From assembly GCA_023053545.1 (NCBI GenBank), contig JAKZAN010000002.1, forward strand, positions 3,208,375 through 3,272,374: a stretch of DNA of 64,000 nt, given 5' to 3'. Position 1 is the first letter of the stretch. Every line of letters starts with the position of its first letter. Of this stretch, positions 9,345 to 62,991 are shown in pieces. Source of the stretch: Lepidurus packardi. Taxonomy: Eukaryota > Arthropoda > Branchiopoda > Notostraca > Triopsidae. The notes under the pieces were generated by a model. The model saw only the letters and a program-made list of their open reading frames with translations, was not told where the DNA came from and made no database searches. The position numbers were made by a program, and so were the translations under genes.

Positions 9345-10298
9345 ATGAAGACCCTTGAGCTTATTCTTGTGATCTGTGTTAGTCAATGTCTCTGTGGTAG
9401 ACGACAATCATTTCTGTCATACACCTTAGCTTCGCACAATGGCGCCACTTTGCTCTTCCAAGCGATTGGATTGGGAAATACTCCGCAACGCAACGCTGAC
9501 AACTCAGTCTTAAATTTCGAAGAATTCGCACCCTCAGCTACTTTAAATTCAAACAATTCATCGGTTTCGAGACAAGATGCATCTGTTTCACGCCGACCAT
9601 GCAAAACCCAAGTCACCGTTAAAGGGCCACAGGGGAGACTCTTTCTTCCCAGCATCAGAATTGTAACTTCGTTCGCCTTTACGAATTCCGTTTTCAATCT
9701 CGCCACAACCAAATATTGCTACTCTTGGACTGGCGCCAAGCCGTCTTTTTGCCGCCGTAAACGTTCCCTGGAAGGAGTCAACAGGTTGTACCCCACCGAC
9801 GTCCTCGGGTAACATTACCTACTAGAACTAGCCTATAAGATCAATGCTAGTCTATAATTTCAACTTCTTCTTTGTCTATAGCTAATTCGTAAACCTTGTA
9901 TATTTTGAATATGCATACTATTAGATACTAAATATACATTTCAAATAATTTGGGAATACTTATTTGTTAGGTTGGAAACGACAGCCGTTCCTCATTTTGT
10001 TACAGACGAGTACGAATTGATTCCTAATACAGAATCTTTCAGCTCGCTGCAATCATCTTTGACCGATGACTTGCAAATAGATTGTGAACCAACTCCTGAC
10101 GAAGCGTCCGAAACCGAATACGAACTCGGAGGTCGTGCATTTTTTAACGTAGTGTCGGCTACCACAACGAGTACAATTACCCTTCTAGCAACCTCAGTAA
10201 CGACCACTTTGACCAACCGAATACTCTTCGGCTCCAGTCTTGATCCTATCAGCACATATTGCATTCCTCATGAGTACGCTGCCAGTGTAGTTTGCTAA
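9345..10298 (+). CDS. Tandem secreted-protein family, gene A (two-exon form)
   Basis: Two exons (9345-9808, 9971-10298) give 263 residues. I do not recognise the family. A signal peptide (MKTLELILVICVSQCLCG) is followed by SYTLASHNGATLLF, a Ser/Asn-rich spacer, RRPC, GPQGRLF, a Thr-rich stretch leading to KYCYSWTGAKPSFCRRKRSLE, and YPTDV. RRKR followed by SLE is a good proprotein-convertase site. Exon 2 begins ETTAVP, carries an acidic linker (DDLQIDCEPTPDEASETE), then GGRAFFNVVSATTTSTITLL, a further Thr-rich strand, and ends CIPHEYAASVVC. The order matches the multi-exon relatives: Thr/Val strand, C...C, polybasic site, ETTA.P, GRxxF, Thr/Val strand, C-terminal Cys. Here the first two and last two coding blocks are fused, leaving one intron. 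Gene B is the sister copy; their second exons are both 328 nt. Function unknown; probably secreted and cleaved. Confidence 0.85.
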
Positions 10299-11379
10299 AG
10301 AAGAAGATAAATTGTAAACCAAACAATTAAGCTGACTTAATGTAGTTAATTCCTGTGACCTAGCTTAATTAAGTAATACAAGCGTCCGTAGTATTTGAAA
10401 TAGTTTGTTGGATTTGTTGAATTAGTATACAACTTATTATGCGACGGAAGTTGGTTAAAGATTGGCAACAACATCGCTCTAGCCGAAGTGGAGTCGTGGC
10501 TTCAGGATATCACGCTAAAAACCTCGGGTTTACTTTGCTTTACCGATCTAATATATTTAATACATGACCAAGTCCATTAGGTATGTTTGCTAAACAGAGC
10601 CAGGTGGTTACGTGTACTGAGCAGGGGTTTAGTAAGAAAATACCATAAGAGTCACAAGGACAACTGAAAGCAAACTGACGACAATCCAATGACTAGAAAG
10701 TGGGGTGCTTTAAACAACAGAAAAACTTAGATCGACGTTATTATGGTTTCTTGTTGATTGAGAACTTCTTGAGCAAATACTTCTCTCAGCAATAAACTTG
10801 ACTAAGATGACTACGCAAAATTTGCAAAAAGTTCGGTACAAATACCGTGCAAAATATCGAGAGTCCGCAATTAAAAATTGACTCCTTTGACTCTGCGATA
10901 GTGCCCCATGTATCTAAAGAAACCTAAACTAAAGATTCCGGAATGGAATAAGTTTGGCACGCGTTTAAAACAATACAGTTTCCTTACACAGAGATTGAAT
11001 ACCTTGGTGTATTTAACCTTAATGTGGAACTAAACGCTTAAAATATCTTTTATTATGCCATAAAGTAGGTCTGAAAGAAACAAATTGGCACCAAGAAGAA
11101 CTATATACCTAACTTTAATAATAACCGAGATATTAAAACAAATATCTCTCTAAAAAGCACTATGGCAACGCCGTAAACTCTCAAAGCTGGTCTGGCCGTT
11201 GAAATTTTAACACAAGGAAGGCAGTGTCGTCATTACATGAGCAAGAGTTTATTTACAATTGTTTGTATAATCCAGAAGTCTACCGTAAGTTGTTTAATGT
11301 GATAAAAATATTATAGAATGCGTTTAAAACTTAAATATAATTATTAGAAGGATTATTAGAAATAATTTAGCATTATGAC
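10299..11379. other. Intergenic region left of the Tigger relic
   Basis: AT-rich non-coding sequence. No canonical AATAAA is found close behind gene A. No open frames, RNA genes or clear repeats were seen. Confidence 0.5.
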
Positions 11380-11856
11380 ACTGTGGAGGGTGATCCTGAA
11401 GTGGATCTTTTAAGCTCACCCTAGCTTTCTTATAAATTATTTCCTGCGTGGTTAAACCTCCTTTCATATGCCTTTCATTAATCCAAACTAACAGCAAGCT
11501 CTCCATTTCATCACTAATTTTTGGTATACCCGTGAAAAGACTCTTGAGACTCCCTTGGCCACCTTTGCTTTCATGATTGATTCTCTAATGGCTAAAATTG
11601 TTCCTATGGTTGACTCGATCACTCCATGCAGCTCCAAGATCCATAACTCTAGCTCCTGAGTCTTTTTTGTCTATAATTTCTGGCTTCTTTTCAATAGTAA
11701 GTGCTTTTCTACTCTTTCCACTTACGGTCTTCTTAGGTGCCATTTTGATAGCACTAAAAGAAGCATTGAACTTTCCACAAACTTCAAGTACAGAAAACAT
11801 AACAGAGCGCGCTTGCGGTTCGTAATGCGGAACGTTCTTTATGCGAGGCACCACTG
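11380..11856 (-). mobile_element. Degenerate Tigger/pogo-type DNA transposon relic, 5' part
   Basis: On the minus strand the sequence starts CAGTGGTGCCTCGCATAA, which looks like a Tigger/pogo terminal repeat, then repeats the words CGCATAA/CGCATTACGAAC. An ATG at 11743 opens MAPKKTVSGKSRKALTIEKK, then PEIIDKK, the N-terminal CENP-B-like helix-turn-helix of pogo-family transposases (compare KRK.LTIEEK.EII). After frame breaks a second piece reads MESLLLVWINERHMKGGLTTQEI (about 11420-11506), matching the block where the family has L..W...R..G..I....I. The catalytic DDE region and the other end were not found. It is inactive. It sits between genes A and B. Confidence 0.72.
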
Positions 11857-12124
11857 CACTTCTCTAGAGTAACAGGTGTTTAAGCGCACTTAGCTTAGGT
11901 TCTCCATAAGAAATGAAAATAAATAACCGCCATAAAGACAAATGAAATCAAAGAGATGGCAAGTTAAACGATTAAATTGCTAGATTTCCTGCCTCATCAA
12001 TTGGCAAAAAAAAAAATATACGTCAAAGAATTGTTGACTGAAAACTCACTTATGCCATTATGTAAATCCCCACCCCCATAATCTCAATTGACCAAAATGA
12101 CTAAGCAAAATTGCAAAAAATTGG
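11857..12124. other. Short non-coding gap upstream of gene B
   Basis: AT-rich sequence with an A-tract at about 12005-12016. Nothing else is visible. Confidence 0.4.
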
Positions 12125-12132
12125 TATATATA
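12125..12132 (+). promoter_or_regulatory. TATA box of family gene B
   Basis: TATATATA lies 44 bp upstream of the ATG, nearly the same spacing as in gene A, supporting a shared promoter design for the A/B pair. Confidence 0.6.
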
Positions 12133-12168
12133 GCGAGCGAAATAACCAAGGTTCACATTAGCCTCAAA

Positions 12169-13230
12169 ATGAAGACCCTGTACCTTACAATAGTGCTCTA
12201 TTTAACTCAATGTCTGTGCAATCCACAATCTTTGCTGTCTTACACGTTAGCAGGGCACAGTGGCGCCACTTTGCTTTTCAAACCCATCGAAATGCAAGAA
12301 TCACAACCAAAACTTGAAAGCCGAATGTTAAGTTTGGACGAAACCAAACCTTCATCAGATACTTCGGCACAAACTAATTCATCAATTTCAATCCAAGAAT
12401 CATCCATCTCTCGGCGTCCGTGCTCCCTAACCGCCGTTAGGGGTCCACAAGGAAGATTTTTTGTTGGTAGTAGTAGTACCGTGACCCTGTACTCGTTTAC
12501 TACCTCAACTTTTAAATACGCTTCTGTGGCGTATTGCTACACTTGGTCTGGTCTAGTTAAACCTAATCTCTGTCGCCGCAGGCGCTCTCTGGAAGAAGTG
12601 AAGCAGTTGTACCCTACCGCAGTATATCAACAAGGGTAAACTTACTACTTATTATATGTTGAATGCCTAGAATTCATTAAACTAAATTACCAATCAGGTT
12701 TGAAGATTTTAAATCAATGTAGAATCAAAACTAATAATCAAAGTTGAAGAACCGTAGAATCAATAAAAAACAAAACATTTAATTTTAACGATTAAAGAAT
12801 TAATACTAACCGATAACATATATCACTGATTGGAAATTTAACCATTTCATACGAAACAAAGCTTTCATTCTTGTATTGTAATGAATATTCTTCAATGTGA
12901 AGTTTGGAAACCACAGCTGTTCCTGAATGGATCCTTAATCCTGAACCACTCGACTCGCTGCAGTCTTCCCTAACCGATTCCTTGGACACGGATTGCGATC
13001 CGATCAACAGTGCAAATCTTGAAACCCAATCAGAACTGAGTAAAGGTCGGGCTCTGGTCAAAGGAATCAAAGGTTTCGTGTTACTTTACACCACATCGAG
13101 TACGGTTGTCGTCTTTACCACTTCAGTGACGGCTACCTTGACCAGCCGAGTCCTCTTCGCCTCTTCTTCTGGTGTCATTTCCACGTACTGCATTCCCCAG
13201 GAGTTTTCTTCTACAGCAGTCTGCGCTTGA
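12169..13230 (+). CDS. Tandem secreted-protein family, gene B (two-exon form)
   Basis: Two exons (12169-12635, 12903-13230) give 264 residues. This is the closest paralogue of gene A: the signal peptide MKTLYLTIVLYLTQCLC is followed by SLLSYTLAGHSGATLLF, a Ser-rich spacer, SRRPC, RGPQGRFF, a Thr/Ser strand, AYCYTWSGLVKPNLCRRRRS, LEEV and YPTAV. The RRRR|S site is stronger than in gene A. Exon 2 starts LETTAVP, continues through an acidic linker with DTDC, then GRALVKG, TTSSTVVVFTTSVTATLTSR, and ends YCIPQEF...VCA. An in-frame upstream ATG at 12088 would lengthen the protein by 27 residues, but the TATA box lies between, so 12169 is preferred. The exon 2 acceptor (GTGAAG) has a weak pyrimidine tract but preserves frame and the 328-nt length shared with gene A. 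Function unknown. Confidence 0.85.
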
Positions 13231-13266
13231 AATACCAGAAAAAGTGCAGCAAAAACGCATTTTTTC

Positions 13267-13272
13267 AATAAA
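13267..13272 (+). terminator. Polyadenylation signal of gene B (AATAAA)
   Basis: A canonical AATAAA 36 bp after the stop codon of gene B. Confidence 0.6.
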
Positions 13273-14817
13273 GTAAATGTCTCTTTATCACGTTGTTTTA
13301 TGCTCTATTACTATTGCACTGTTTTTGTAAAGCATTATATTTCATATTACACTGTATTGCCTTTGATTTACACTTTTAACGAAATACAAGAAAATCCAAA
13401 GCATTTGGACAGTTTTGAGAATATTAGCAACCGCGATAGATGGCGTTGACCGACAATGATTTTAATGAAAAACTTGACCGGTTCTAAACAGTTTGTACTG
13501 CACAAAACATGCAAAACTAGAAACCTACAAAAGCATGAATGAAATTTGAGTGCAGTACACATTTTCGAAACTCTTTAAATGTTTCGAGTATATTTCTTTA
13601 CATTTGCCAAAAAATACCATAAAACCTGCATTCCTATAGAAGTAGCTAGAAGTATAGATAGAATATAGATAGAAGTATAGAGTTTTGTTCGTAAAAACTG
13701 GAAAGAAATTCTTTGCAATTCACAAGGTAAAAAACCCCCACTGATTTCAGCCAGCTCTTAGCGTTTTAACACATTTATGGCTATACAAAAGGGCATTCAA
13801 CCTCCTCAGTGAGACGCAAAAGGAAAGAAAAGCCTTCCAGACACGTACATACACATGCAGAAAACTCCAGAAAAGTTTTTATCTTTTCAAATTTTAGGAC
13901 TTCATTTGCATTTTTTCCTTCTGTTTTCGGTGGGTTGCGTGATACCTTGCTCATGACCCTGACTTTCTGAGGCTTTCATTACTAGTGAGGATCACCTTTT
14001 TAAAATTTCAGACAGTGATGGACGAGCACAAGATGGCTTAGGTAAACCGAGCCCTTTCCCGCCCCATCGAAACAACATAAAAAAAAGAAAAGAAAAAAAG
14101 CTAAAAAACCCGTAAGCACAATGACCTGCAGAACAAATAAAATTCCCCGTAAGAGCAGAAAGATATGTGGTTAAGCGTGTTTAAACACAGACCATTAATG
14201 CTCCAAAAACTGGAAAAACGAGTTAACCCGTCTGGAATCAATTTTTCTATGTTTAAAGCGACCTGCGCAATAAAAATGGGCATTAGAAACAAGGTTAAGG
14301 ATAAAATTGATGTAAATATCTCTTTAGTTGACAGTCTAAACCATTTCAAAGCACAAACTTGGGGAAGGAGGGACTTTCCTTACACAGGTTTTATTGAGAG
14401 ACTTTTTTTTTTAAAGCGCATGGTTCCTCTTGTTGCATTTCCATAAGTACCTACTGAGGCATTACAAGGCTAAAAATGCATTTCAGGTTCAGGTTCAGGT
14501 TCGTTGTTCGGTTTCAGCTGGGGGCGACAAGGCGGTAAGAAAGATGAGCTCACCTTTTTTTCTTTTTTTTAATTAGTAAGATATGTTGATGTAGAAGGCA
14601 ATGGGCCGTGTGGTTTCGACCTCGGGCAGTTAGTTTCCTATTCATATTCTCTTGTTCTCATGTCAACTCATGTTCTCTTTTTCTGAAATTAGAATCATCG
14701 CAAGATTAGGTCGGTGGAACGCTGGGGGTGGGGTGAGGGTAATCTGAACCCACACCCCTCCTCAGGTGTTTCGTAAGTCTGATAGGCATCTTACCTCGGT
14801 TTTAGGCTCGTCCGGAG
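13273..14817. other. Intergenic region between genes B and C
   Basis: Non-coding. Contains short direct repeats (AGAAGTATAGATAGA words at about 13640-13680; GGTTCA repeated three times near 14487-14502) and a GATAGATGGCG word near 13436. Open frames of 60-90 codons near 14100-14450 have no recognisable content and no splice context. Confidence 0.5.
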
Positions 14818-14825
14818 TATAAATA
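14818..14825 (+). promoter_or_regulatory. TATA box of family gene C
   Basis: TATAAATA, 118 bp before the ATG. The same octamer recurs 102-112 bp before genes D, H and I. Confidence 0.65.
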
Positions 14826-14935
14826 GAGGTCAAATACGGATTGCAGCATTAGTCTGGGTCAGAGCAGCTTCCGTGCAAAATCACGCCACCTTCAAAGCGG
14901 TCAAAAAGTATTATAACAAAAATTCTACGTTCATC

Positions 14936-16045
14936 ATGTTCAAGCAAGTGATCATCTTCGTGAGCCTCGTGGCCGTAGTTTTGTCATCCGAATCCGAGCC
15001 GGCCAACCGTTTCTTGGCGTTCGCCAACACCAAGACTATCTCTTCCGTGGTTCTGACTACTACCACCTTGCCTACGACTGTGGCCAAGTAAATAGGATTC
15101 CATGATTTATAGAAATACTTAAAATACAAATTTCAAGCATAATTTATTAAAGAAAATTTAAGATAACGGTTAATTTTTATAAGCATAGACATTTGTTTAA
15201 GTTAGTGTAACCAGTTTGGTAAAAGCGAAGTACTTTTTTAGAACTTTATACCTTGGTTTTGTTTGTATTATAGTTTCTATGACATTGAGGGTTAATCTGA
15301 TGTAATTCTTGACTTATTTTTCCTCCAAAACCCTAGGACCTGCTATACCAGCGCTGCCGCCGCTCTTGTTCAATGTCGTCGCCGTCGTGGTATTGAGGAA
15401 CAACCTGAAATCATTGTTAATGGAGATTTAAAGCTTGCAGATATCCTTGCTTCAAAACCCGTCGAGTAAGGCTTCAAAATCTTATTTGCTCAGAATCATG
15501 AAACAGTTATTTTTGCATCCTCTTGGACGTTGTGTCCTTCATTGTTTCAAGGTTAAAATGTTGCACTGTTTCATAGATCATAGTTTTCTTTCTACAACAC
15601 AGTTTTTTCAAATGATCAAATGCGGTTGGTTTCTCTGATTTGTTCATTTTTATTCAATCGTAATAGAGTTGAAACCACCGCTGCCCCAGTTCTCCAAGAG
15701 TTCAAAGTACCAGAAGCTGCAGCTGACCTCCAAACCTCGTCCGAAGTTGAAATTTCCGGATTGGACAACTGCTTGGGTCGATCTGCTTTTGGAATTACCA
15801 TCTATTACACAGTAAGTGTTTTTCTTCTAAATTTGCATTGATCAATAAACAAATGGAGAAAAATGATACACTAAATTTACAGTGTACGAAAATTTAAAGC
15901 AAAATCTTTAATTTCCGTTGATTTTGTACATCCTCAGACTACCACCAGCATCATCCTTACTAGCTACTCGACCGTCCAATCAGGCACTTCCTCTTTCACT
16001 GTTGATGTATGCACCCCTGCCAATTTCCCTTATACCTTGTGCTAA
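14936..16045 (+). CDS. Tandem secreted-protein family, gene C (four-exon form)
   Basis: Four exons (14936-15087, 15337-15465, 15667-15811, 15938-16045) give 177 residues. The signal peptide MFKQVIIFVSLVAVVLSSES is followed by PANRFLAFANTKTISSVVLT, TTTLPTTVAK, then in exon 2 TCYTSAAAALVQCRRRRGIE, EQPE and an acidic region. Exon 3 starts VETTAAPVLQ and carries EISGLDNCLGRSAFGITIYY. Exon 4 is a second Thr/Ser strand (TTTSIILTSYSTVQSG) ending VCTPANFPYTLC. Junction phases are 2, 2 and 0, as in the relatives. Five cysteines remain in the mature region. The 108-nt last exon equals the sum of the last two exons of gene D (69 + 39). An unidentified family; predicted secreted and cut after RRRR. Confidence 0.87.
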
Positions 16046-17616: not shown

Positions 17617-17624
17617 TATAAATA
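17617..17624 (+). promoter_or_regulatory. TATA box of family gene D
   Basis: TATAAATA, 102 bp before the ATG. Confidence 0.65.
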
Positions 17625-17718
17625 CGCTGAGGCCTAGGATAGGGTCACCACACATTCTCTTGAGACTTCAGTGAGAGCAGTTGCAAACACTGTGAAAGCT
17701 CCAAAACACATTTACAAG

Positions 17719-19014
17719 ATGTACAAATCTGTGCTTCTTTTCGTCGCCGTTTTCGTGGCATACGCTTCAGCTCTTGAAGGAGCCAACCGATTCTTAGCCG
17801 CCACCAAGACCGCTACTTCTGTAGTTCTCAGCACTACCACCGTCCCTAGTACCGTAGCCAGGTAATCCTTAAATATTTTGATTTAAAACAAAAGTCATCA
17901 ATAATTGAATGTGCGAATCAGGACTTGCTATATCGAGAGTGCTGCTGGTCTCCCTCAGTGTCGTCGTCGTCGTGCTTTGGAAGAACAGCCCGAAGTTATC
18001 CTCGGCAATGGTGAAGACGTTGATTTGGCTGCATTGCAACCCTCCGAACGTGTGCAGTAAGTCAAATTTTGGCTAAAATACTTTTCTTTTTCATTTAAAG
18101 AACTAGGAAAAACTTAATTTTCGAATTTGTTTAAGGATACTGTGATAATGATTACATGATGTTAGATCAGTTTAATGTTCCTTTTAGGTTTTCTTCTTTG
18201 ATTTTTCGAAAGAAAATCATTAATGGAATTGAAATAGGAATATATGTAGGGCAACATAGGGCATATAGGAACATATATGTAGGGCAACATCCACCAAAAT
18301 CAAATTTTTCGCTTATTGGCAAGGCACGGCCAATCAGCGTAACATGTCTGACTTTGCTGTTGCCGTTTTATTTCATACACATTACGTCACAAAAACACCG
18401 CGACACGCTCAAATTCCAGTTTTCTTAATCATATTATTCTAAAAACTCAAGTACTATTTCGCGCTCAGAGGACACTAAATCGCTAAAAATTAGATTGTGT
18501 ACTCTATTTTCTAATATAAAGTTATTTGTTGGTAGCTATTGCTCTTTAATGTTGGCCTGTTTTTTTTAGAGTCGAAGTGACGGCTGCTCCCGCTTTGGAC
18601 GCTGCTTTCCCAGAGGATGAACCTCTGAAAGTAGGCAAGGATGAAGTCCAGAGCTCCACCGAAATTGAGATTAGCGGTTTGGGTGATTGTTTAGGTCGCT
18701 CAGCTTTCGGTCTTACCATCTATTACACGGTACAAAATAAAAAAAGAAAGAAACGCTGATACTGAAAAACAAAATACGTTTATTTCAAAATGCTTAACGA
18801 AAAATCTTTTTCCTAATCTAGACCACTACCACCGTTATGCTTACCTCATTCTCCTTCACCACTGTTGGCTCATCCTCCTTCACAGTTGGCGTAAGTCTAA
18901 TTTTATTTCTATTATTTGCACAAGGAAATGGAAACTATTTAAGAAAAACACGACTAATAAAGAATTCTTATACAGAAATGCACACCTGCTGGTTTCCCTT
19001 ACAGCAAATGCTAA
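17719..19014 (+). CDS. Tandem secreted-protein family, gene D (five-exon form)
   Basis: Five exons (17719-17861, 17922-18056, 18570-18729, 18822-18890, 18976-19014) give 181 residues. The signal peptide is MYKSVLLFVAVFVAYASA, followed by ANRFLAATKTATSVVLSTTT, VPSTVAR, TCYIESAAGLPQCRRRRALE, EQPEV, then VEVTAAP, EIEISGLGDCLGRSAFGLTI, YYT, the strand TTTTVMLTSFSFTTVGSSSF, TVG and the tail KCTPAGFPYSKC. It differs from gene C by an intron separating the strand exon from the 12-residue Cys tail; phases are 2, 2, 0, 0. It is a good reference copy: every family motif is present and all splice sites are canonical. The second intron (18057-18569) is the longest and contains a duplicated ATATGTAGGGCAACAT word. 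Function unknown. Confidence 0.87.
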
Positions 19015-21300: not shown

Positions 21301-22250
21301 ATGCAAAAATCTGTGCTTTCTTTCGTTGCCGTGGTGTTGGCTACGATGGCTTCAGCCGAAGACTCTGTACCGCAGTCGGCCTACCGATTCTTGGCTGTCA
21401 CCCGATCCAGCACGCAGTTGGTTCTAACCACCACCACACTTACCAAGACTGTACCCTCGTAAGTTACCATCAAGTTAGATTTAAAAAAGAGGTTCGAAAT
21501 GAAGAGCGCGTTCTATTCTTTAAGATTTTGCTACTCTCCCGGGGCTGGTATCTCTCAATGTCGTCTTGGTCGTGGATTGAAAGAAGTACCGCAACTCCTA
21601 CTTGGGGAAGGTGAAGTGGCCTCCTTGGCATCAGAAATCGAACCCTCTAAGCCCGAAACGTAAGCAAAAATCTTTTAATTTTTCTCTGAAAAATAGATGA
21701 AAAAAAGGAGACATGTGATTTAAGTTTCCTTAATTTTTTAAACTTTCATCTCAGTGTTCTAGCAACCATTGCGGCCGTTTTAGACCCTACTGCACAGGGA
21801 ATTCAGCTACTTAACAATGTCGAGATTCAGAGTTCTTCTTCCGAAGTCGAAAGGGCTGGTTTGAATGAAGTCGGTCGTTCGTATTTTGGGTTCACCATTC
21901 ATTACACGGTAATTATACACCATTATTTGAGGTTAGAAATGTAAGCCTTTTTGTTTCTGTAGACCACCAGCACTGTCATCCTGACCTCTTACTCAACCGC
22001 AGTTTCTGGCTTGTCCTCATTTACTGTTTTGGTAAGTTAACTTTTTTTCAACTGTAAATGATAAACTTTTTAATAATGAAGTAATACTGAAAAAAATTAA
22101 ACATTTTGGATAACTATTAAATGGAGATGGCTTTACATTTTGTATAATTTTTATTTTTTACCTATACAGGGTTGCACACCGGCGGGTTGGACTTATTCCA
22201 CTTGTGTTCCTGAGCCTTGCAAAGTGAACATTTTGGGCCTTTGTCTATGA
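21301..22250 (+). CDS. Tandem secreted-protein family, gene E (five exons, cleavage site lost)
   Basis: Five exons (21301-21458, 21525-21659, 21755-21908, 21963-22031, 22170-22250) give 198 residues. The signal peptide MQKSVLSFVAVVLATMASA leads to AYRFLAVTRSSTQLVLTTTT, FCYSPGAGISQC, then RLGRGLKE instead of the usual RRRRG(I/L)EE, so the polybasic site is gone. The EISGL.NCLGRSAFG block reads VERAGLNEVGRSYFGFTIHY: the middle cysteine is missing. The tail GCTPAGWTYSTC is extended by VPEPCKVNILGLCL, adding two cysteines. All splice sites are canonical and the frame is intact, so it looks like a functional but changed paralogue rather than a pseudogene. It shares SPGA.I.QC and PSKPE with gene F, its nearest relative. 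Confidence 0.85.
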
Positions 22251-23368: not shown

Positions 23369-24456
23369 ATGAAGAAATTTATGCTGCTTGTCCTAACCGT
23401 GTTGGCAGTGGTGATTTTTGCAGAAGAGCCATCAGTACCTGAAGCGGCCAATCGGTTTCTATTCACTTCTCGAACCAGTACTGCCTTGGTTTTCACCACT
23501 ACCACCATTCCCGTCACCAGGGCCGGGTAAATTAACTGAGTTACTTAACTATTAAAGTTAACTAAGTTCTGCATGTGATCGAATCGTTTTAATTTTGTAT
23601 ATTTGTTTCTCTTTTTTATCTATTTATCAGAACTTGCTACTCCCCTGGAGCTGACATCACTCAATGTCGTCGCCGCCGTGGCTTGGAGGAAACGCCTGAA
23701 ATTATCACGGAAAACAAGCATCTGTCCAACTTAACGGACATTATTGAACCTTCCAAACCCGAAAGGTATAACTATAAATATGGAGAATTTCCACCATTTA
23801 GCCCATAATAATTATTTTAATGATATTAGGGAATATTCTTAATCAAGTACGCAATGTCAGTACAATGTAACTAATTAAAAATTAAGCGAATTTTAAAAGA
23901 AAAGGAATATTCTCCTTAATACGTTTTGGGATTGGAATTTAGTGTCGTAGCAACAGCTGGCCCCGCTTTGGACGCCATTGTGCCCGAAATTCAAATACTT
24001 AATAAGGTTGAAGCTGAGAGCTCCTTTTCTGAAATAGACAAACTTGGTTTGATGAGCAATTTGGGTCGTTCCGCTTTCAAGTTGAATATCTACTACACGG
24101 TAAATGCAATAACTTATTATTTTAGTAATTAACTGGCTAAATGTTTTTAAGCCAATAAACCATGTTTTGTTATAGACCACAAGTACCGTCACCATTACCT
24201 CCTACACCACCACAATTTCCGGCTCGACTTCCACCTTCACCGTTAGTGTAAGTTATTCAAAATCCCTGATTTTTAACTAATTAGTTACTTTTTTTCCTGC
24301 CAATTTTATTATTATGAACGTAACCAGTCTAGTAAAAATGTTCTTAAAAATTTACTATACAGAATTTCAGTTTCAACACTTCTAACCTTTACGTCCATTT
24401 CCCCTCAGGGCTGTACTCCAATTGGCTGGACTTACACCACATGTCTGGCTGGCTAG
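23369..24456 (+). CDS. Tandem secreted-protein family, gene F (five-exon form)
   Basis: Five exons (23369-23526, 23631-23765, 23943-24099, 24176-24247, 24409-24456) give 189 residues. The signal peptide MKKFMLLVLTVLAVVIFAEE is followed by ANRFLFTSRTSTALVFTTTT, IPVTRAG, TCYSPGADITQCRRRRGLEE, TPE, a linker ending PSKPE, VVATAGPALD, then GLMSNLGRSAFKLNIYYT, the strand TTSTVTITSYTTTISG, and the tail GCTPIGWTYTTCLAG. The polybasic site is intact, but the cysteine before LGRS is Asn-preceded by Ser (no Cys), as in gene E. The strand exon is 72 nt and the tail exon 48 nt. Splice phases follow the family rule. The start could also be the in-frame ATG 12 bp later. No TATA box was found. Function unknown. 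Confidence 0.86.
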
Positions 24457-24794: not shown

Positions 24795-24802
24795 TATAAA
24801 TA
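24795..24802 (+). promoter_or_regulatory. TATA box of pseudogene G
   Basis: TATAAATA, 68 bp before the relic ATG; the promoter word survives although the coding sequence is broken. Confidence 0.5.
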
Positions 24803-24862
24803 GCTTGAAGTTGCAAACGCATTGGACATAAGATCGCCAAGTGTTTAAGTTAAAGCAAGAAA

Positions 24863-25913
24863 ATGTTTCCGAAACCAAGTTTATGCCTCTAGGTCCCCAT
24901 CCTGGCGGTGTTTAGCGCGCAAACTGACGCTTCTGCACTCGCGGAACCTCTCGATCGCTTCCTAGCCATGACGCGGACTAGCATCCGTCATCCTTAGCGC
25001 AGCCACCCTTCCGACAACCGTACCGCGGTAATGAAAGCAGTCCCAATAGGGCTTTCTTACGTCATAAGAAATCCTAAGTTTTCTTAAGCTAGTCCGATAA
25101 ACTACAATAAGAACTCTTTCCTTATTCACAGGACCTGCTGTAATTCTAATGTAGTACTAACGCAATGCCGTCACCGTCGAGGAATCCAAGAACTACCCGC
25201 AATCGACAACTTAGACCGCGATTTGCACCTCAAGGAGATCCTTTCTAGTCTTTCTAAACCAATCACGTAAACACTCTAAACTTGTCAATCACAATTATTA
25301 TCTACCGGGAATTTTCTATATTAAGCTGTTCTCTTAACTATACACATTCCTATGAATTGGATAATTAAGTGTTTACCCTTAACTATACAGGCTTAACTTA
25401 CGATTTTATATTTCGTCCACTGGAAAATTCTACTATAAATGATCGATTAGCTATTATTGTTTAAAACATACATACATGTAATTACTGTAATAGTTAGAGT
25501 ACATACAATTACGATTCTGGAAATTCGCCTGTTTCTTAGTGTTGAACCAACGAAAGAACCCACATTGATCCAGCAGGCAACAGAATCCGATGAAGCATTC
25601 CTAGAAGATTCAACCGAGCTAGAAATACCTGCTCTACCTAATAGCTTCGGGCGTTCCGCATTAGGTCTTACCATTTGTCACGCTGTAAGTCCTCAAATAG
25701 AAACGAAACCGGTCTTTAGAACGCAAGGAATATAAGTGAAAACCGATTTTGCATCAAGTCTAGTAGTTAACTATATGACAAAACTCTTGTATTATTTATT
25801 TGAACAACTACTCGGCAACCACGAGCGTCATCCTCACCAAATTCTCCATAACTGAAGAAGTTTCGAGGTCAGCGATTGTACTCCATCTGGTTTTCCCCTT
25901 CTCAAAGTGTTGA
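24863..25913 (+). pseudogene. Tandem secreted-protein family, pseudogene G
   Basis: A decayed copy with recognisable exons at about 24863-25028, 25132-25266, 25540-25684 and 25815-25913. Exon 1 has an in-frame TAG at codon 10, inside the signal peptide (after MFPKPSLCL), continues as LAEPLDRFLAMTRTSIR, then changes frame into VILSAATLPTTVPR. Exons 2 and 3 are intact, with correct phases and splice sites: TCCNSNVVLTQCRHRRGIQE, and VEPTKEPTLI through LEIPALPNSFGRSALGLTIC. Exon 4 starts ATTSVILTKFS but its expected AG acceptor is CG, and a further frame change precedes the CTPSGFP tail. The basic site is weakened (RHRR) and the middle Cys is lost (NSFGRS). Two breaks, one stop and one splice-site loss make translation of a full protein very unlikely. 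Confidence 0.82.
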
Positions 25914-26402
25914 CAGACGATTAGAGTTGGTAATAAATTGGCAAGAATGTATCTTCTTAACTGATCTTCTGCATACGTTGAGCTTGTTTGCAATTCTTTT
26001 CCATTACTTTACGTTCCCCAATTGGCAAGCCAAGAAGAAATCGTTATTAAATATCGCAAAAAAACGATTCGCTTCTCAGGATATAGCAACTCTACAGACT
26101 TTTGGACAGGTGCAATACATTTGCAAGTGCCCCAGAGGTCATTGAGCAGTGGCGCAACTCATATCCATGTATGCTAATGATGTACCTAGGTCAGGAGACT
26201 TTTTCCTTGTCTGGTTTAGTAAAGCGTATAGTGTTGTACCTCCCATGATTCTCGATGGGGCCAAAACTGGTAGTCCGTGCCAAAAACGTAAGGAAAAAAT
26301 AGCGAAATGTAACAAGCTTTTACAGGCACTTTTGAATTGACGAAGTACTCAAGGGGAGGAGACCAAAGTCTGATAAAACAAACCGGTACTGGGTCTACTG
26401 TG
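25914..26402. other. Intergenic region between pseudogene G and gene H
   Basis: Open frames at 25876-26145 and 26149-26340 (+) have no recognisable domain. Non-coding as far as I can see. Confidence 0.4.
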
Positions 26403-26410
26403 TATAAATA
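26403..26410 (+). promoter_or_regulatory. TATA box of family gene H
   Basis: TATAAATA, 106 bp before the ATG. Confidence 0.65.
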
Positions 26411-26508
26411 CTAGGAGTTTTAACGCACTATTCGCCAGGATTCTCCCATCCTTAAGTGAGTGAAATCGAAGGTTCCAGGTTAGACCAGAGTAAAGTGTTC
26501 CAAAGAAA

Positions 26509-27430
26509 ATGTACAAGTTGGTACTTTTGTTCGTACTGGCGGTAGTTACTGCGAACAGGGAACCAGAAAGGGCCGGCCGCTTTTTGGCGGCTACCAGAAC
26601 CTCAACTGTAGTAGTTCTGAGTACTACAACGATTCCATCCGTTGTCAAAAGGTATACATTCTCTAAGGTAAGGGTTAATTTGGAGCTTTAACTAAAAATC
26701 TGACTCCTATCAGGACATGTTGGACTGCAGCTCCTGCTGCAGCCGTCCTCACCATGTGCCGTCGTCGCCGAGGAATCGAAGAACAGCCAGACGTCATTGG
26801 CTTCCAAGCTCCTTTTGACATCAAGCCTTCGAATACCCTACCGTAAGAGTGGTTAGTTTTTAATTCGTGTAAGCCCATCCTAAATTTTCCTGTGCTCTAA
26901 AGATTTCTCATTCAAAGCTTAAAAAGGTTTAATTATTAGAGTTTAGAGATACTCAAAAGCCCACATCACACTTAAGTTTGAAACGAAACATTGGTTGCGA
27001 ATGCACTTGTCTAAGATTCAGATCTTCAACTAGATTGCAAACGACAGCCTTACCCGATTTTGAAGAACCAAAGGCTTTCGGACTCGTCGATAAAGCGAAG
27101 AATGTTTTAGAGCCTTCCACCGAAGTTGAAGTTAGTGGCATGGAAAACTGTTTGGGTCGGTCTGCCTTCGGAATTACAATTTTCTTTACGGTAAGAAATG
27201 ACTTTTTCAAACTTTTCCTATACATTAAAAAGTTGGAAAAAGAGTTTAAAATTGGAGATTGTAAACTGAGGAGTTGGAAATTGGAGTTTAAAATTGTATT
27301 AATGCTCCATCATTATTCTTAGACTTCGACTACTGTGGTACTAACGTCCTTTTCGAAGAGCACTTCAGGAGCTACTACCTTCACATTGTCCAACTGTTTC
27401 CCCAGTGTGCTTGAAAGCGATAAATGCTAA
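26509..27430 (+). CDS. Tandem secreted-protein family, gene H (four-exon form)
   Basis: Four exons (26509-26651, 26714-26842, 27034-27190, 27323-27430) give 178 residues. The signal peptide is MYKLVLLFVLAVVTA, then AGRFLAATRTSTVVVLSTTT, IPSVVKR, TCWTAAPAAAVLTMCRRRRG, IEEQPDV, LQTTALPDFE, EVEVSGMENCLGRSAFGITI, FFT, TSTTVVLTSFSKSTSGATTF and a tail NCFPSVLESDKC. It belongs with gene I (TCW, MCRRRR, VVKR). The exon 3 acceptor is the second AG (CAACTAG), which restores codon CCA across the junction. The tail is less like CTPAGFPY than in other copies but keeps the cysteine spacing at both ends. The first intron is 62 nt. Function unknown; secreted and probably cleaved. Confidence 0.86.
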
Positions 27431-28952
27431 ATGTAGAGCTGATCCGGTACATTATCCGTTGATACATATTTATTGTTACAATTTAAATCATTGAACCAAT
27501 ATTGCCCAAACTTGTTCGAGGTAAATATCTTTGTCACACTTTTTGCTCCCATTTGTTGCGTTTATTTTACACCACTGATTGCTAAATACAAAATTCGAGT
27601 GAAAATTACAGGGTATAGTTTTAAATAATTTTATTTAGCTTGGATTCAAGTTTATAAATCATTATACTTAGCTTTAAAAACGAGAACATTTTTATAATAT
27701 TGAGAAATTTACACATTGTAAGGAAATGAATAAGGTTGGAATCGCTAAAGCCATTGTCAATATTAAAAAGAAAGATAAATGCAGCAATTGGCATTTGTCA
27801 GACTTTGCTGAATGTAAATAAAATAAACTGCAAAATGTGTTACACTACAATAAAATGCTTATAGTTTCCAAATTAAAACGTAGTTTACAATATTTCATTT
27901 GTGATTTCAAACCTGTCAATAAAGTACCTTTGAATTCTGCCTTTGTATTAATATTGCTAAATTCAGTGCCGATAAGGTAACGAAATATAGTAAATTTAAA
28001 ATAACTTTCTAATGACATAATGGCAGTAAGATAGCCAGATACGTAATAACGTTGTTCGAACAATGTTTAACCTAACAAACCAACATATTTGAGGTATCAT
28101 TTCGTCATTAACCTTGCTTCATTTATAATGTATACTTTTTTGTTTGACGACGTGACCCATAGTTTAGGTGTACACACTTTACTATTGTAAAACTTTTATT
28201 TTGACGTGACCTGCGTCAAGTCCTTCTCGATGAAGCTTACCTTTCATCTAATTCAATCAGCAAGCATGCAGTCACAGAAAAACTTCAGTAGTGATGTTAT
28301 CCAAAGATTGGACTTGAGATAGAACTGACCTAACGCAACAAAATCGTAAATAAGCTGACAAATAACGGAAAACGTAAATAACGAAAGGCATCGAAATGTT
28401 GGATAATATTGTTTAAAGTTTTAGTTGCCTACCTCCTAGTTTTGATATAAGCAAATAAGACAACATTTAACCGTAAAATTCCCCAAAATGGATTCCAATG
28501 AATAGATCATTTCAGATGAGGCAAAATTCAAAAGTCAGGGCACGATCACTACAGGTTGCCGGTACTGGCTAGCTAGCTGTATACATAATATACCTTATTA
28601 TTAGGAAAGTCTAAAGCAGTAAATAGGATGGCAGCATACATTTTGCCTTTGTAAAACGAAGACAGACAGAGTATGCACCAGGCGTAACTGCTTGATCTGC
28701 ATGAATCAGAAATCTGAAATACATTGCCCATAGCCACGTAACGCAGTCAAAAAGCACTACGCTAGTCATACGCCAGGTCAACAACGATCCTTTTTACAAT
28801 ACATGCTGCTTCGTAAGAAATACAAAGTTCGAATACCTGCGGAAGTTCACTGTAACAACGCCTTGAAAAGATTCAAAACAAAAGTTTGGCACACCCTAAG
28901 CACGCATTTCGCACGCAAATGCAGGAGGAGCTTAAAAGCGTTTAAGAATCGG
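27431..28952. other. Intergenic region between genes H and I
   Basis: AT-rich, non-coding. No family fragments, RNA genes or repeats recognised. Confidence 0.5.
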
Positions 28953-28960
28953 TATAAATA
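28953..28960 (+). promoter_or_regulatory. TATA box of family gene I
   Basis: TATAAATA, 112 bp before the ATG. Confidence 0.65.
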
Positions 28961-29064
28961 CCGGTAGCGTTTACGCAAAACGCCACATTGCACAATTTTT
29001 GCTTTCCACCTCTGCAGCAGTAAGCTTGAGTAGGGCAGTCTTCTCCCGCCCACAACCAACAAGA

Positions 29065-29963
29065 ATGTACAAACTGGTATTTTTCGGTTTCCTGGCAGTT
29101 GTTTGCATTAGTGTTGCAGGATTGCCAGCGGAATCGGAAGCGGCTTACCGCTTCTTGGTGGCTACTAGGATCAATACCCAAGTTATTTTTAGCATTACAA
29201 CGATCCCCACTGTTGTCAAAAGGTTCGTGTTGGAAGATCTTTCGTACTATCTCAACGTTAAGTACAACCATTCTTCTGTTAAAAAAATCCTTTTCCCTGT
29301 TTTTCAGGACGTGCTGGGTAAAGATAGGAGGTGCTGCTCCTGAGCTCACCATGTGCCGCCGTCGCAGAGGAATTCTAGAAGAGCCTGAAATCTTAGGCTT
29401 GGAAGATATCAAGCCTTCAACTGTAGTACCGTACGTTTTTCTTCTTTTTCTTGTTATTACATAAATAATCACCAAATCGTTTAAATATTTCTTACAATCA
29501 AGTAGTTTGAAGATTTTAGTTTTTTAAAGTAGGAAAGAAAAAAAATCTTTGGAAGTTCAAACCCCTCTAATAGACTTTCCGAATCAATTTTCATACAGTC
29601 TGGATGCTACGGTCCAACCCCAAGAACTGGACAAACTTGTTTCAGAAATTTCCTCAGAAGTGACCAATAGCAATACCGACCTGGAAACATCCTCCGATGT
29701 AGAAATTAGTGGTATTGAGAACTGCTTATTAGGTCGTGCAGCCTTTGGAATTACTGTTTTCCAGACAGTGAGTATCCTGATTCTGAAATTAAATAACGTT
29801 TTTATGTCAGACTTCGGAGTTTTTTTTAATAATTATTCTAAATTGTTATGTTCAGACCACTACCACAGTTGTAATAACTACCAAAACAACTTCCACGTCT
29901 GGAGATGTAACGTTCAGCTTAGGCTCGTGTGTCCCAAGCCAGGTTATAAATAACAAATGCTAA
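29065..29963 (+). CDS. Tandem secreted-protein family, gene I (enlarged third exon)
   Basis: Four exons (29065-29222, 29308-29430, 29533-29767, 29856-29963) give 207 residues. The signal peptide is MYKLVFFGFLAVVCISVAG, then AYRFLVATRINTQVIFSITT, IPTVVKR, TCWVKIGGAAPELTMCRRRR, GILEEPEI. Exon 3 is 235 nt against 145-175 in the relatives: it opens with a lysine-rich stretch (KEKKSLEVQTP) and carries about 26 extra residues of linker before DVEISGIENCLLGRAAFGIT, VFQT; note the extra Leu in CLLGR. Exon 4 (108 nt) is TTTTVVITTKTTSTSGDVTF ending SCVPSQVINNKC. The enlarged exon could come from use of an upstream acceptor, because the expected position before LEVQTP has no AG. Closest to gene H. Function unknown. 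Confidence 0.84.
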
Positions 29964-30771
29964 GCTTTGTTATTTAATTACGACCCTGACGACAGCTACG
30001 GTGCTTTACTGAAAAACATAATTTATAATGAATCGGTGATAATGTATTCCCCGTTTCGACAAATTCTTGATATCTTTTACCCGTTGTGTTCTCCGAATAC
30101 AAGACTCATTAAATTAAAACATAACTGTTTGATCCGTTTAAATTAAATCCATAATTACTTTAAATCTCCTCTGGTTTAGTTATTAGGAATTCTTATACAC
30201 TTTCACCCTTTCACTGAAGTTAAAGAAAGGTTACTAGATTCCCCACAAACAGACAACATTTCAATTCATGATCAATTCATTACTGCAATATTGCAAATGC
30301 CCTTATCCTACTTATAGTAGGATGAAAAATTGACAATTCAGCATTGAAGTTTTTACAGGCTAAAGGCCCAACTGCGAATCCCTGTGACGAGTCTAAAAAA
30401 ACTGGTCCCACCAGTCAAAAATGTTTTCCAACCTGAAACTCCGCCCTTGTCAGGTAGTCCTGTCCGACCTGGCTGTGTACACAATTTATCGAGAAGGAGG
30501 AGAATTTTTAAAACTATGTAAAGGTCAACGTCCAACCATCTAAGGAAGCAAAGCACAGGAAATAAGAATAGGCGATTCGGTGAACCGGAGCCTCTGTTAC
30601 TGAGAACGAGCAAAACCGATCTAACTGGATCTGTCAAACTATTCTGAAATAACTCGTTTAACTAGTTTTGAATACACGAAGCGTTCAATGACTCGCTTCG
30701 TTGACGATCGCATCTATAATTAGTTTTTTGGCAGCGTAACCAGTTAAATTTTTTTCATACCCTGGATTCAG
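29964..30771. other. Intergenic region between genes I and J
   Basis: Non-coding; an open frame at 30353-30637 (-) shows no recognisable content. Confidence 0.45.
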
Positions 30772-30779
30772 TATATAAA
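30772..30779 (+). promoter_or_regulatory. TATA box of family gene J
   Basis: TATATAAA, 102 bp before the ATG. Confidence 0.6.
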
Positions 30780-30873
30780 TGGTAGTGGATATCAATCCTA
30801 CATAGATTCTTCTCTAAGCTAGACACAGTATATACAAGTACCGATTCCCAAAATTTTACGTTTTGTCTTGACA

Positions 30874-32206
30874 ATGCAAAAACTCGTGATTCTCCTGACG
30901 GTAGTTGTAGCCGTCGTTTCGGCCGAAGAATTAGCGCCCGCTAACCGTTTCTTACTAGCCGCGACACGTACTGCTACCAGCGTCATCCTAAGCACGACTA
31001 CCGTGCCTAGTACCGTAGCCAGGTAAATGTGTTTTGGTTCAAGATTATATTTTAAGGACAATGTTCTTTAACGAAGCTCTTCTGTTGCTTCTTAACTGAA
31101 ACTCTAGAACTTGCTGGAAATCCGCTGCTGGGTCTCCAAGTGTTTCCCAATGTCGTCGACGTCGTGGTATCGAAGAACTTCCCGAATTGAAAAAATTCGA
31201 CGAAGGCTTAAACCCACTGGAAATTAAAGCGTCTGTCACCAAACCCCTTGCGTAAGTCGACTTTATAGTAATGCGTGATGTTGCGCTGATTCCAGAATGG
31301 CGTCTCTTATCGAAATGCTGTGATTCGTTATCGAATTATGCTGGTTGTAAATTCACTAAGAAACCTATTGCACCCTTACCCTAAACAAGGGTAAGAGATC
31401 TTGAACTTGGCCGACTCCATTTTGAACCCTTACTCAACTACCTGACCCTTTGCTGGATCAGCCAGCTGACCCTTTTATCCACCTTTCCCCCTCTTTGCAA
31501 TAAAGGGCTCCCGTTATCTGCAAGAATGAATTTCCAAAGAGATAGGGTCTCCCTTCCGTGACTTGCATTTCCGTCGCCTCCCTCAAGCATGAATTTTCCG
31601 AGGAGGAAAGGAAAGACGGCGGTTGAGTTGGCAGGGTGAAAAAAATAAATAAAATGGGATTCACCGTTTTCATTCCGAAGATGGTTCTACAAAGACGAAT
31701 ACCCTAAGCATTTGAGGTCGTTATAGCTCTGTAACGAAACTGCAGAAAATAAAGCCTTACACAGTCAGCATCAGCAAAAAATAAAATAAAAATTTAATCG
31801 GCATGTGAATTAAAGTCGCGAGGGAGATTTTATTTTAAAATTTATATCTTTGATTTTTCGTTAAACTAGTGTCGAACCCACCGCGGCTCCCGCAGTGCTT
31901 CAGTTTACCGAAGAGAACTCCGCAATCGCTCTTCCCGTCAAGATCACGGAAGTCGAATCTTCCTCTCATCAGGAAGTGGAAATCAACGGTTTCGAAAACT
32001 GCGCATTCGCTCGCTCTGCCTTTGGCGTCACCATCATCTACACGGTAACTTAACAAAGAAAGCTCGCTAATAAAATGTAAAAAAAATCCTTCCTTTAGGC
32101 CACCACCACCGTGATGATCACTTCTTACAGTTTCACAATATCTGGTACTTCCTCATTCGAAGTTAACGGTTGCACTCCTTCCAACTTCTGCTTCTCCAAG
32201 TGCTAA
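30874..32206 (+). CDS. Tandem secreted-protein family, gene J (four-exon form)
   Basis: Four exons (30874-31022, 31108-31251, 31870-32044, 32099-32206) give 191 residues. The signal peptide is MQKLVILLTVVVAVVSAEE, then PANRFLLAATRTATSVILST, TTVPSTVAR, TCWKSAAGSPSVSQCRRRRG, IEELPEL, a linker, VEPTAAPAVL, EVEINGFENCAFARSAFGVT, IIYT, ATTTVMMITSYSFTISG-like strand, and the tail GCTPSNFCFSKC, which has one more cysteine than gene D. LGRS is changed to FARS. The second intron (31252-31869) is long. It shares SPSTVAR-type exon 1 features with gene D. An AATAAA follows 72 bp after the stop. This is the last intact copy in the array. Confidence 0.86.
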
Positions 32207-32277
32207 TTTTAATTCCCCGCTCATTAATTTATTCGTTAAGTATATAGTTTCCAAACTGTAGAGTTTGTGTGTAAAGA

Positions 32278-32283
32278 AATAAA
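32278..32283 (+). terminator. Polyadenylation signal of gene J (AATAAA)
   Basis: Canonical hexamer shortly after the gene J stop codon. Confidence 0.6.
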
Positions 32284-34374
32284 AGCATAGTACCCAACTC
32301 TCTTGAAACACATATTTTTGAAAATCTTAATTGTCAAAAGAAAACGGCCCTGAAACTCGAAACGTTGTTTCAACATATAATTGACCTGGAACTCAAAACA
32401 CAGAAGGAGCTCTTAAGACGTGCAACATTTTGTTTCTGCATAAGCACATCAGCAAACCCCAAAAAGGAAAAGGGTCATGGTCAGAACTTGTTCGTCTTGC
32501 GCTACGTATGCATAGTGGCACTTGAAGAGTTCAAAGAACTTCACGAAAAGGAACCGCGACCAAGAAAGAAACCTTGAATTTAAATTGTTAATTATACAGA
32601 CGCTTCTGCCAATAAACTAATGAATCCCAAACTCAAACTTGTTCTCACATGTGAAAACCCTTACACTGTACAAAAACTGGTTTCCGGTTCAAGAAAATGA
32701 AGAAAAAAATCTTTCACATGCCAAAGTTCTCCATCCCAGCAATCAACCCTTTCGTGGCTTTGTCATGCTCTGTGGGACCTTCAGAACCTGTCTATAACAA
32801 AATTGTATTTGTATATTACTATAAATTTTTTTACACAATTTTTTCACACTTTGGTCGTTTGAAATCAGTAAGGAGTCGATGACCTAGCGAAAGACAACTG
32901 GTTCTTGCGGTTCATTGCAAGAATAGTACCAAATAGTAAGAAAAAAAATACCAAAGTACTAGTTCGGTGTGTCATAACAATTTACTGTTAATTCTCCCAT
33001 AGGCGTTTATAGTTAGAGCATGAAAAATCCCTTATTCCACTCCTGTTTACCTTCTGTGATTCAAAAAGACTTGTGCGAGTTCCAAAATCATTTAACATAC
33101 TTTAAGAGACACAGAGAATGTTAAACCCGAATAATTGAACTTTCATCGGGACAAACTGCTTCAATATTGAGAACTTTAAATGTTATGTGTCTGTGACCTA
33201 TATGCAAAGACCTATACATAATGTAACTTATAATCTTAATGGTAGGCTACCAATCATGAGTGCACATTATGTAGACAATTATTTGCATGATTAATAAATG
33301 CAACATTTACTAAATGGCTAATAATTCATGGATGAGTTTCATCTTAGTTTAAATGTGTTAACTTTCTTTTGTTTTAATTTGTACGTGTTTTAAAATGTTT
33401 CAAATATTTTTAAGATCTCTTCACTTTTTCATGAAACGTGATTTTTCCTTTAGATATGGTGAAATATGTATTTCTTGAGTTTTTTTTTTAAATGTCTAAG
33501 ACAAAAAGATTCCTAAAATTTATAAAACTTGAAATGTCTTTTCCCTTCTCAGAAATCTTCAAACACGTCAAACTTCTTTTTTTTAACTTTTTTTTTTTCA
33601 AATGTCTTCAAAGCTGGAACTTCTTTTCAATGTAAAAGTTTGGGGGAAAATCCTTAACAAAACGTATTTTATTGCTTTATTATTAAAAATTAACTGCTTG
33701 ATTGAACTGACAATATTTGTTCACGAAATATCTGAAACGTCTAACCAAGTTAATTCAACTTCTCGAGCTCTTACCATTACATAATTTTCCCTTCTTTTTC
33801 CATCATTTTACCGCTTTACAGATAACTGTAATTATTTTTTAAAAAATGAAAAGACAAAACAGCCAAATCACTGCGGTAAATTACTATTCACCTACATGAA
33901 AGGGAAAAACCAGTTGGGTCAATGCATTCTTTTTCGACGGTCAAGGGCTTCGCTGGACCAGCTCAAATTTGGCAATGATTTTCTGGACAAATAAACATCA
34001 TCCATAAAAACTCTGGCTGCACTTGGCAAAACTACCAGTTTCCTGTGTCATTTTTTACTGTGTACTCGCTAATACTTCTGCACAAAAAAGGGTTTACACA
34101 TGCCATTTTACTTTCAACCAAAAGTCCTACAATTCTTTTCTTTCCAACTCAATAAACATTTTAATAGAACCATTCATAAACGACAAAAAAGGTCTAATTA
34201 ATTCTTAGTGGAATAAGAATCATTCAATTAGGAAATAGAAAACTACCCATCTGAAATTAGCAGTTAAAAATGGAAAATATCAAATTTAAATCGAAATTTC
34301 AAAAAGAAGAAAAGAAAAGGAAGGGTTTTCAATAAAATAATGAAACACAAATCTACTCTTAATAGATGATTTCG
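32284..34374. other. Intergenic region between gene J and remnant K
   Basis: Strongly AT-rich, with T-runs near 33480, 33580 and 33830. No gene or family fragment recognised. Confidence 0.5.
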
Positions 34375-35191
34375 CTTTGTTGTGCTCCTGCTGCTGATGA
34401 CTTCACCTTCACGAATTTCAGCTGAATTTCCAGAGTTGGAAATCGAACATGAAGAAATTTCAACAAAGGATTCAGGCATTGAAGTCGAGAACGGAGAAAC
34501 TCCAACAGAAGTCTCAGACTTGGAAATCAAGAATGAAGCAAGTCAGTAGACATCGCATTAGGTCGTCTATCAACGCAAATTGTTACGGCAGTCACTTGGA
34601 AAACGACGACTGCGGCCACAACTGAAACAACCTGCGCGACTACATCGGCGCCACTGGCGTTTGTCCTAAATCCAGTTTAATTTTGCTTTCGGAATTCACC
34701 GAAGACGATAAGAATGAATTCCAACTCATTAAGCCTTCCAAACCAATCAAGTTAGTATTTACAAATAGACACATCCATAAAAAAATGGAAAGAGTGGACG
34801 GGTGACGTCGTTCTGTTTCTAACGACTAGATGACAACTGCGCCCGGAGACCTGTCAGAGGAAAAAGGGGAAGGGGTGGAGCCTATAGTTGCTGAAGAGAC
34901 TCCATGACTTCTAACGACTTCATGAGGAAAGAAAAGAAATGGCTGGACGGTTCCAGGGTGGTAAAACTCGACAACAGAGAAGAGTTTGTCACAAGTATGG
35001 CAGCCCTGAGAGCATATACTATGGCCCTGCCATACACAAGTTCCCTTGCTGCACGAGCTACTTCAAGCACTGCACGAGTTACTACGTACGCTACCTTCAC
35101 GATTACAAACAAGCGAACTGTCTACTCGGGCAGCAAGATGTACCTTGTTGGCCGTTGTACGCCAGGTAATTTCCCTTACAAAGCACGCTAA
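34375..35191 (+). pseudogene. Diverged or decayed family copy K
   Basis: Family-like pieces appear in order but in broken frames. At 34375-34551 a hydrophobic leader (VVLLLLMTSPSRISA) runs into an acidic linker (EIEHEEISTKDSGIEVENGE) with no in-frame ATG before the leader. At 34553-34676 a Thr strand (TAVTWKTTTAATTE) runs straight into TCATTSAPLAFVLNP, matching the exon 1/exon 2 join without an intron; the CRRRR site is absent. IKPSKPIK before a GTTAGT donor at 34751 matches the exon 2 end. TTAPGDLSEE near 34834 matches the exon 3 start but meets a stop, and a last frame to 35191 has ATSSTARVTTYATFTITN and ends RCTPGNFPYKAR. Multiple frame breaks argue for decay; a rearranged functional gene is less likely. 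Confidence 0.6.
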
Positions 35192-62973: not shown

Positions 62974-62991
62974 TTGCGAAAAAAAACAGCC

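What the first reader, a model, noticed from the sequence alone, without database searches (positions are those of the whole stretch)
9345..35191. Tandem array of an unrecognised secreted two-part protein family
Nine intact genes, one pseudogene and one decayed copy, all on the plus strand over 26 kb, encode 177-264 residue secreted proteins with a shared plan: signal peptide, RFL motif, Thr/Val-rich strand, TC(Y/W)...C, RRRR(G/S)(I/L)E, acidic linker, NCLGRSAFG-like motif, second Thr/Val strand, Cys tail. I can name no known family with this layout. The convertase-like site suggests release of two chains that may pair through disulfides. The number of copies and their divergence point to a lineage-specific expansion, as seen for secreted defence, adhesive, cuticle, reproductive or signalling proteins; the sequence does not decide among these.
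Basis: partly seen in the sequence, partly recalled or inferred. Interest (0 to 1): 0.9.

Follow-up and report, generated by a model that had tools for sequence, protein, structure and literature searches.

The report
Clustered two-module secreted water-flea-like proteins
A crustacean, probably a water flea, carries a row of nine related genes for small secreted proteins built from two threonine-rich parts joined by a probable protease-cut site; they belong to a larger unnamed family whose job is not yet known.

Summary
Nine intact spliced genes, one pseudogene and one decayed copy lie on the plus strand at 9345-35191. The array is one of at least four sites of a larger family in this 108.6-Mb genome: I built 20 models on contigs C2, C3 and C4. 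Across the 20, six alignment columns are invariant: four Cys, one Arg at the predicted cut, one Thr. Each half ends in a Cys-loop-Cys; a phase-2 intron separates the halves in all 20. Ten of the 20 scanned against Pfam, and three profiles against the PDB, gave no credible match. Five database fragments carry the same CRRRRGI(E/M)E first half, so the family is probably not confined to this genome. dN/dS was 0.27-0.43 in nine of ten chosen pairs. Best reading: a convertase-cut secreted precursor giving two Thr/Val-rich chains, each closed by a disulfide loop near its end, most likely an extracellular coat or matrix component; cutting, disulfides and role are inference. Disulfide pairing of the chains is not supported as a general rule. 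No structure model was obtained.

The parts
9345..10298 (+). gene A, 263 aa, exons 9345-9808 and 9971-10298; site CRRKR from 9750; extra Cys in each half
12169..13230 (+). gene B, 264 aa, exons 12169-12635 and 12903-13230; site CRRRR from 12571
14936..16045 (+). gene D, 177 aa, four exons; site CRRRR from 15374
17719..19014 (+). gene E, 181 aa, five exons; site CRRRR from 17959
21301..22250 (+). gene F, 198 aa, five exons; site CRLGR (about 21559, read), two extra Cys in an extended tail
23369..24456 (+). gene G, 189 aa, five exons; site CRRRR from 23665
24863..25915 (+). pseudogene H: family pieces with stops and shifted frames; still reads CRHRRGIQE
   Evidence: three-frame translation only
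26509..27430 (+). gene I, 178 aa, four exons; site CRRRR from 26757
29065..29963 (+). gene J, 207 aa, four exons (third exon start revised to 29533); site CRRRR from 29354
30874..32206 (+). gene K, 191 aa, four exons; site CRRRR from 31151
34361..35191 (+). decayed copy: remnant of the last module (YSGSKMYLVGRCTPGNFPYKAR) and linker-like pieces
   Evidence: (weak match to 35045-35182, E 0.06)

Best explanation
The array encodes secreted precursors of an unnamed arthropod family. Steps: (1) a signal peptide is removed (inferred from the hydrophobic N-terminus); (2) a furin-type convertase cuts after the Arg that follows the first Cys loop (inferred from the site); (3) basic residues are trimmed, so that the first chain ends in Cys wherever the basic run directly follows it (inferred); (4) each chain, a Thr/Val-rich and perhaps beta-strand segment followed by a C-x(8-13)-C loop, closes that loop with one disulfide (inferred from invariant Cys). 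The halves look like diverged copies of one module, which is suggestive, not shown. The second chain carries an acidic linker. Most likely role: a component of an extracellular coat, matrix or surface layer, expanded by tandem duplication and kept by purifying selection.
For: Four Cys, one Arg at the cut and one Thr are invariant in 20 of 20 aligned models (for W the Arg may be aligned by chance). R at P4 and P1 in 9 of 9 window genes and 16 of 20 overall; in the 16 non-C3 models P1 Arg 16 of 16, P4 15 of 16, P3 15 of 16, P2 14 of 16 (the C3 models read by eye). An N-terminal 11-residue hydropathy above 1.9 in 18 of 20 (B 1.84, R 1.43). The whole protein ends exactly in Cys in 13 of 20 and the first loop's second Cys directly precedes the cut-site motif in 14 of 20 and in 5 of 5 fragments. 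Linker intron phase 2 in 20 of 20 (printed; my arithmetic from the coordinates for the rest). dN/dS 0.27-0.43 in 9 of 10 chosen pairs. Module likeness: hhalign P 0.00022, probability 45%. Second chain acidic in 16 of 16 (-2 to -15), first chain near neutral, median +1 (first chain started crudely at residue 19): unlike strongly cationic peptides.
Against: No expression, proteomic or structural data. A hydrophobic-moment test found no clear alternating strand pattern (mean z -0.53 and 0.64 at 170 degrees, 1 of 16 above 1.64 each). Other module comparisons failed or were weak: probability 1.35%; 725 of 1000 controls reached the loop score; full modules 29.5 against 29.2 shuffled; 25 of 2000, best pair noticed beforehand; 41 and 505 of 5000; 240 and 50 of 5000. 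W lacks a convincing cut site at the usual place; R, T3 and V lack P4 Arg. The G-(I/L)-E that follows is kept more strictly than a convertase requires (recalled). Nothing in the data points directly to a coat role.
Confidence: 0.42

Rival explanations
1. Defence effectors: the cut releases a secreted peptide or two-chain protein that acts on microbes, with the acidic part as a masking pro-region.
For: Tandem array with pseudogenes, secretion, convertase-like site, TATA promoters in 9 of 10 window copies.
Against: First chain is only weakly charged (median +1, range -2 to +8 in 16 models); dN/dS 0.27-0.43 in 9 of 10 chosen pairs shows no arms-race signal at this coarse level; NF-kB-like sites within 400 bases upstream of only 1 of 17 copies, the pseudogene.
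Confidence: 0.22
2. Signalling or hormone-like precursors: chain A or the C-terminal loop of chain B is a cyclic peptide ligand.
For: Signal peptide, polybasic site, small disulfide loops near chain ends; the second loop reads C-T-P-x-x-(F/W)-x-(Y/F)-(S/T/P)-x-C in 9 of 16 non-C3 models.
Against: First loop varies in sequence and length (9-13); no amidation Gly just before the basic site in the sequences; 20 copies is many for one ligand (recalled expectation).
Confidence: 0.15
3. Reproductive or egg-envelope proteins (eggshell, ephippium, seminal fluid).
For: Secreted, Thr/Ser-rich (18-33% of the first chain in 15 models, F left out because the script missed its site), clustered, locally duplicated.
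Against: Purifying selection in the pairs tested; no tissue data.
Confidence: 0.13
4. The RRRR run is a binding site (for acidic glycans or similar) rather than a cut site.
For: CRRRRG(I/L)E is kept more exactly than a convertase needs (recalled), also as CRRRRGI(E/M)E in 5 of 5 fragments.
Against: F keeps only R..R (RLGR), A RRKR, pseudogene H RHRR and U RNGR, all fitting R-x-x-R; P1 is the one basic position without exception (16 of 16; 20 of 20, W doubtful).
Confidence: 0.15

Closest known systems
Five unnamed database fragments P0001-P0005
   Same: Thr-rich segment, C-x(9-11)-C, CRRRRGI(E/M)E; four of five end, by eye, near the family's exon border before the linker intron (P0001 runs on); three (P0003, P0004, P0005) start with a signal-peptide-like stretch and P0002 has one after an upstream extension
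   Different: Only first halves; a search with second halves gave none at E up to 1 among 924 candidates; organisms not given. P0001 and P0003 were in the profile, so their scores there are by construction
Convertase-processed secreted precursors in general (recalled; for example insect attacins or prohormones)
   Same: Signal peptide, R-x-x-R site, chain release expected
   Different: No credible Pfam match in the 10 of 20 models scanned; Cys-loop chains on both sides of the site
Arthropod cuticle and chitin-binding proteins (recalled)
   Same: Secreted, clustered, tandemly duplicated
   Different: No chitin-binding or cuticle Pfam domain among the 10 models scanned

Membership tests
Convertase-processed secreted precursor | N-terminal signal peptide | tested here: met
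   hydropathy above 1.9 in 18 of 20, a simple measure only
Convertase-processed secreted precursor | R-x-x-R ending in P1 Arg | tested here: met
   9 of 9 in the window, 16 of 20 overall; R, T3 and V lack P4 Arg, W has no clear site
Convertase-processed secreted precursor | actual cleavage | not testable with these tools
   needs mass spectrometry
Cationic antimicrobial peptides | clearly positive mature peptide | tested here: not met
   first chain median +1 (A is +8), second chain -2 to -15 in 16 models
Chitin-binding or cuticle proteins | recognised chitin-binding or cuticle domain | tested here: not met
   none at E up to 1 in 10 of 20 models; the only matches were fn3_6 (K) and an RTX N-terminal model (T3), both E 0.38 and below cut-off
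Any family with a solved structure | profile match in the PDB | tested here: not met
   A1 and A8 none; A2 two titin matches at E 0.18 and 0.82, not credible
Internally duplicated two-module protein | significant likeness of first and second module | tested here: inconclusive
   for; weak or against:

The most novel reading that the evidence does not exclude
An undescribed extracellular two-chain assembly: one Thr-rich Cys-loop module was duplicated inside a gene, a convertase site arose between the copies, and the resulting precursor spread over at least four genomic sites, with relatives in other organisms, giving a set of related chain pairs that could mix combinatorially in one secreted layer.
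Probability: 0.25. Interest if true: 0.6.

Novelty: new variant of a known kind. Interest (0 to 1): 0.42.

Why it matters
Water fleas are a test case for genes without known relatives. This family has a clear design, a testable cut site, a defined gene set (20 models) and hints of relatives elsewhere, so expression, cleavage and gene removal can be tested directly. If the two-module design is right, it would be a new secreted protein architecture.

Tried and rejected
Known family: Pfam on 10 of 20 models (D, E, K, A, T3, U, V, W, P, S4) and PDB profiles (14, 89, 90): nothing credible; the other 10 models were not scanned. Viral contigs: 24 stretches matched a pattern, none confirmed as a relative. 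C2:12.41 Mb and C1:8.65 Mb hits: Thr-rich low-complexity or unrelated frames, rejected by eye. Weak hits not followed: C4:1.279 Mb and C191, C1:13.78 and 6.76 Mb, C6:10.64 Mb, C1:1.26 Mb and C154, C2:5.00 Mb. A degenerate DNA pattern for the site gave 34 matches against 24 for the pattern read backwards; 12 of the 34 are family members by position. Upstream motif search found nothing beyond TATA (top 7-mer in 7 of 10, control mean of the top count 6.9). P0002 did not return; one search scored only the 7990 candidates sharing most words. Only P0003 and P0005 were searched in this genome (best 40% identity each), so that the other three fragments come from elsewhere is inferred from their sequences. 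Papers: nine searches, listings with abstract starts only, 28 and 36 empty; exact motif strings found three unrelated papers; PMC3584848 was searched for six terms with no occurrence. I found no paper on this family in those searches.

Full report
What is there. Nine intact genes (A, B, D, E, F, G, I, J, K) encode 177-264 residues, with GT..AG introns and matching phases. A pseudogene and a decayed copy show family pieces in broken frames. Nine of ten copies tested in the window have a TATA element within 150 bases of the ATG, against 16% of random window positions; with the seven copies outside the window then known the count is 11 of 17, against a shuffle mean of 3.9. Of ten chosen pairs, nine gave dN/dS 0.27-0.43 and one was undefined; dS exceeds 1 in six of the ten, so values are rough.

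The family is larger than the array. The window lies at G000:C2:3208375-3272374 of a 108.6-Mb genome. Searches with family proteins found a second group on the same contig, starting about 56 kb beyond gene K (M, N, O, P on plus, Q, R on minus; C2 3.2965-3.3119 Mb), one gene on C4 (S4), and a group of four on C3 at 6.481-6.487 Mb (T3, U, V, W). That makes 20 models; counts from this tool are lower bounds and several weak hits were not followed. M and N are recent duplicates (dS 0.09). A tree of 16 models groups A+B, F+G and M+N+O with starred support; 8 of 13 inner branches are open.

The organism is probably a water flea: 10 of 13 globin matches form five closely spaced pairs, three of them in one cluster on C3, as two-domain haemoglobin genes of Daphnia would (recalled). 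Its name was not established.

Design. In 20 aligned models the four core Cys, an Arg at the cut position and a Thr in the linker are invariant (the Arg of W may be a chance alignment). The first pair of Cys encloses 9-13 residues in the 16 non-C3 models and the second 9-10; the C3 models have 9-11 and 8-11 (positions). Cys counted after residue 20: seven models have just the four; ten have a further Cys before the second-half Arg motif; F has two extra in its tail; A and B have one extra in each half. A phase-2 intron separates the halves in 20 of 20 (printed; computed by me from the coordinates for the rest). The cut site is RRRR in 13, RRKR in A, RLGR in F, ARRR in R, PRVR in T3, RNGR in U, SRGR in V, and not evident in W. 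So P4 and P1 Arg together are in 16 of 20. This fits convertase cleavage, but the strict CRRRRG(I/L)E in many members is more than cleavage requires (recalled).

Are the two halves related? The layouts match (Arg-hydrophobic start, Thr-rich segment, C-loop-C). Tests were mixed: profile comparison of the first set gave probability 1.35%, all-loop scores were no better than permuted (725 of 1000) and whole-module scores equalled shuffled ones, and the best loop pair, which I had noticed before testing, was reached in 25 of 2000 shuffles. T3, whose loops read CLVIPPNLPPCP and CIPNINFPPCP, gave 41 of 5000 with Cys kept and 505 of 5000 with local shuffling; the four C3 genes gave 240 and 50 of 5000; profiles that include them gave P 0.00022 and probability 45%, on hand-picked module limits. 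I call the duplication likely but unproven. A simple hydrophobic-moment test did not show strand alternation.

Relatives. Pfam (10 of 20 models) and PDB profiles gave nothing credible. In a database of 5.8 billion proteins, two searches gave five fragments with CRRRRGI(E/M)E first halves (sequences in 16, 37); a third with second halves found none. Four of the five end, by eye, near the family's exon border. The database names no organism; P0003 and P0005 match this genome only weakly.

Working model. Secretion, convertase cut, trimming to Cys, two loop-closed Thr/Val-rich chains: inferred from sequence. A coat or matrix role is my choice because the chains are Thr/Ser-rich, not strongly cationic, under purifying selection in the pairs tested and tandemly expanded; none of this is direct. 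Defence, signalling and reproductive roles remain open.

Noticed in passing
   Followed up: partly
window 5014-6264 (+); 3631-4119 (+); 62959-63276 (+); 37708-37953 (+): Ordinary neighbours by Pfam: fucosyltransferase (GT10), SURF1, Cu/Zn superoxide dismutase (3 of 8 open frames tested matched), and an SGS-domain exon, probably calcyclin-binding protein (name recalled).
   Followed up: yes
L067 1604-2248 (C3:6484604-6485248): Gene V's linker intron (63 bases) has no stop and keeps the frame, so the unspliced message would also encode one open protein.
   Followed up: no
L052/L053, genes M, N, O, P: The start codon lies at or just after a 3' splice-site-like AG in M, N, O and P, suggesting an upstream exon, unlike the TATA-proximal starts of the window array.
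   Followed up: no
G000:C3 8583227-8698346 and C1 8303282-8304135: Five closely spaced pairs of globin matches, consistent with two-domain haemoglobin genes.
   Followed up: no
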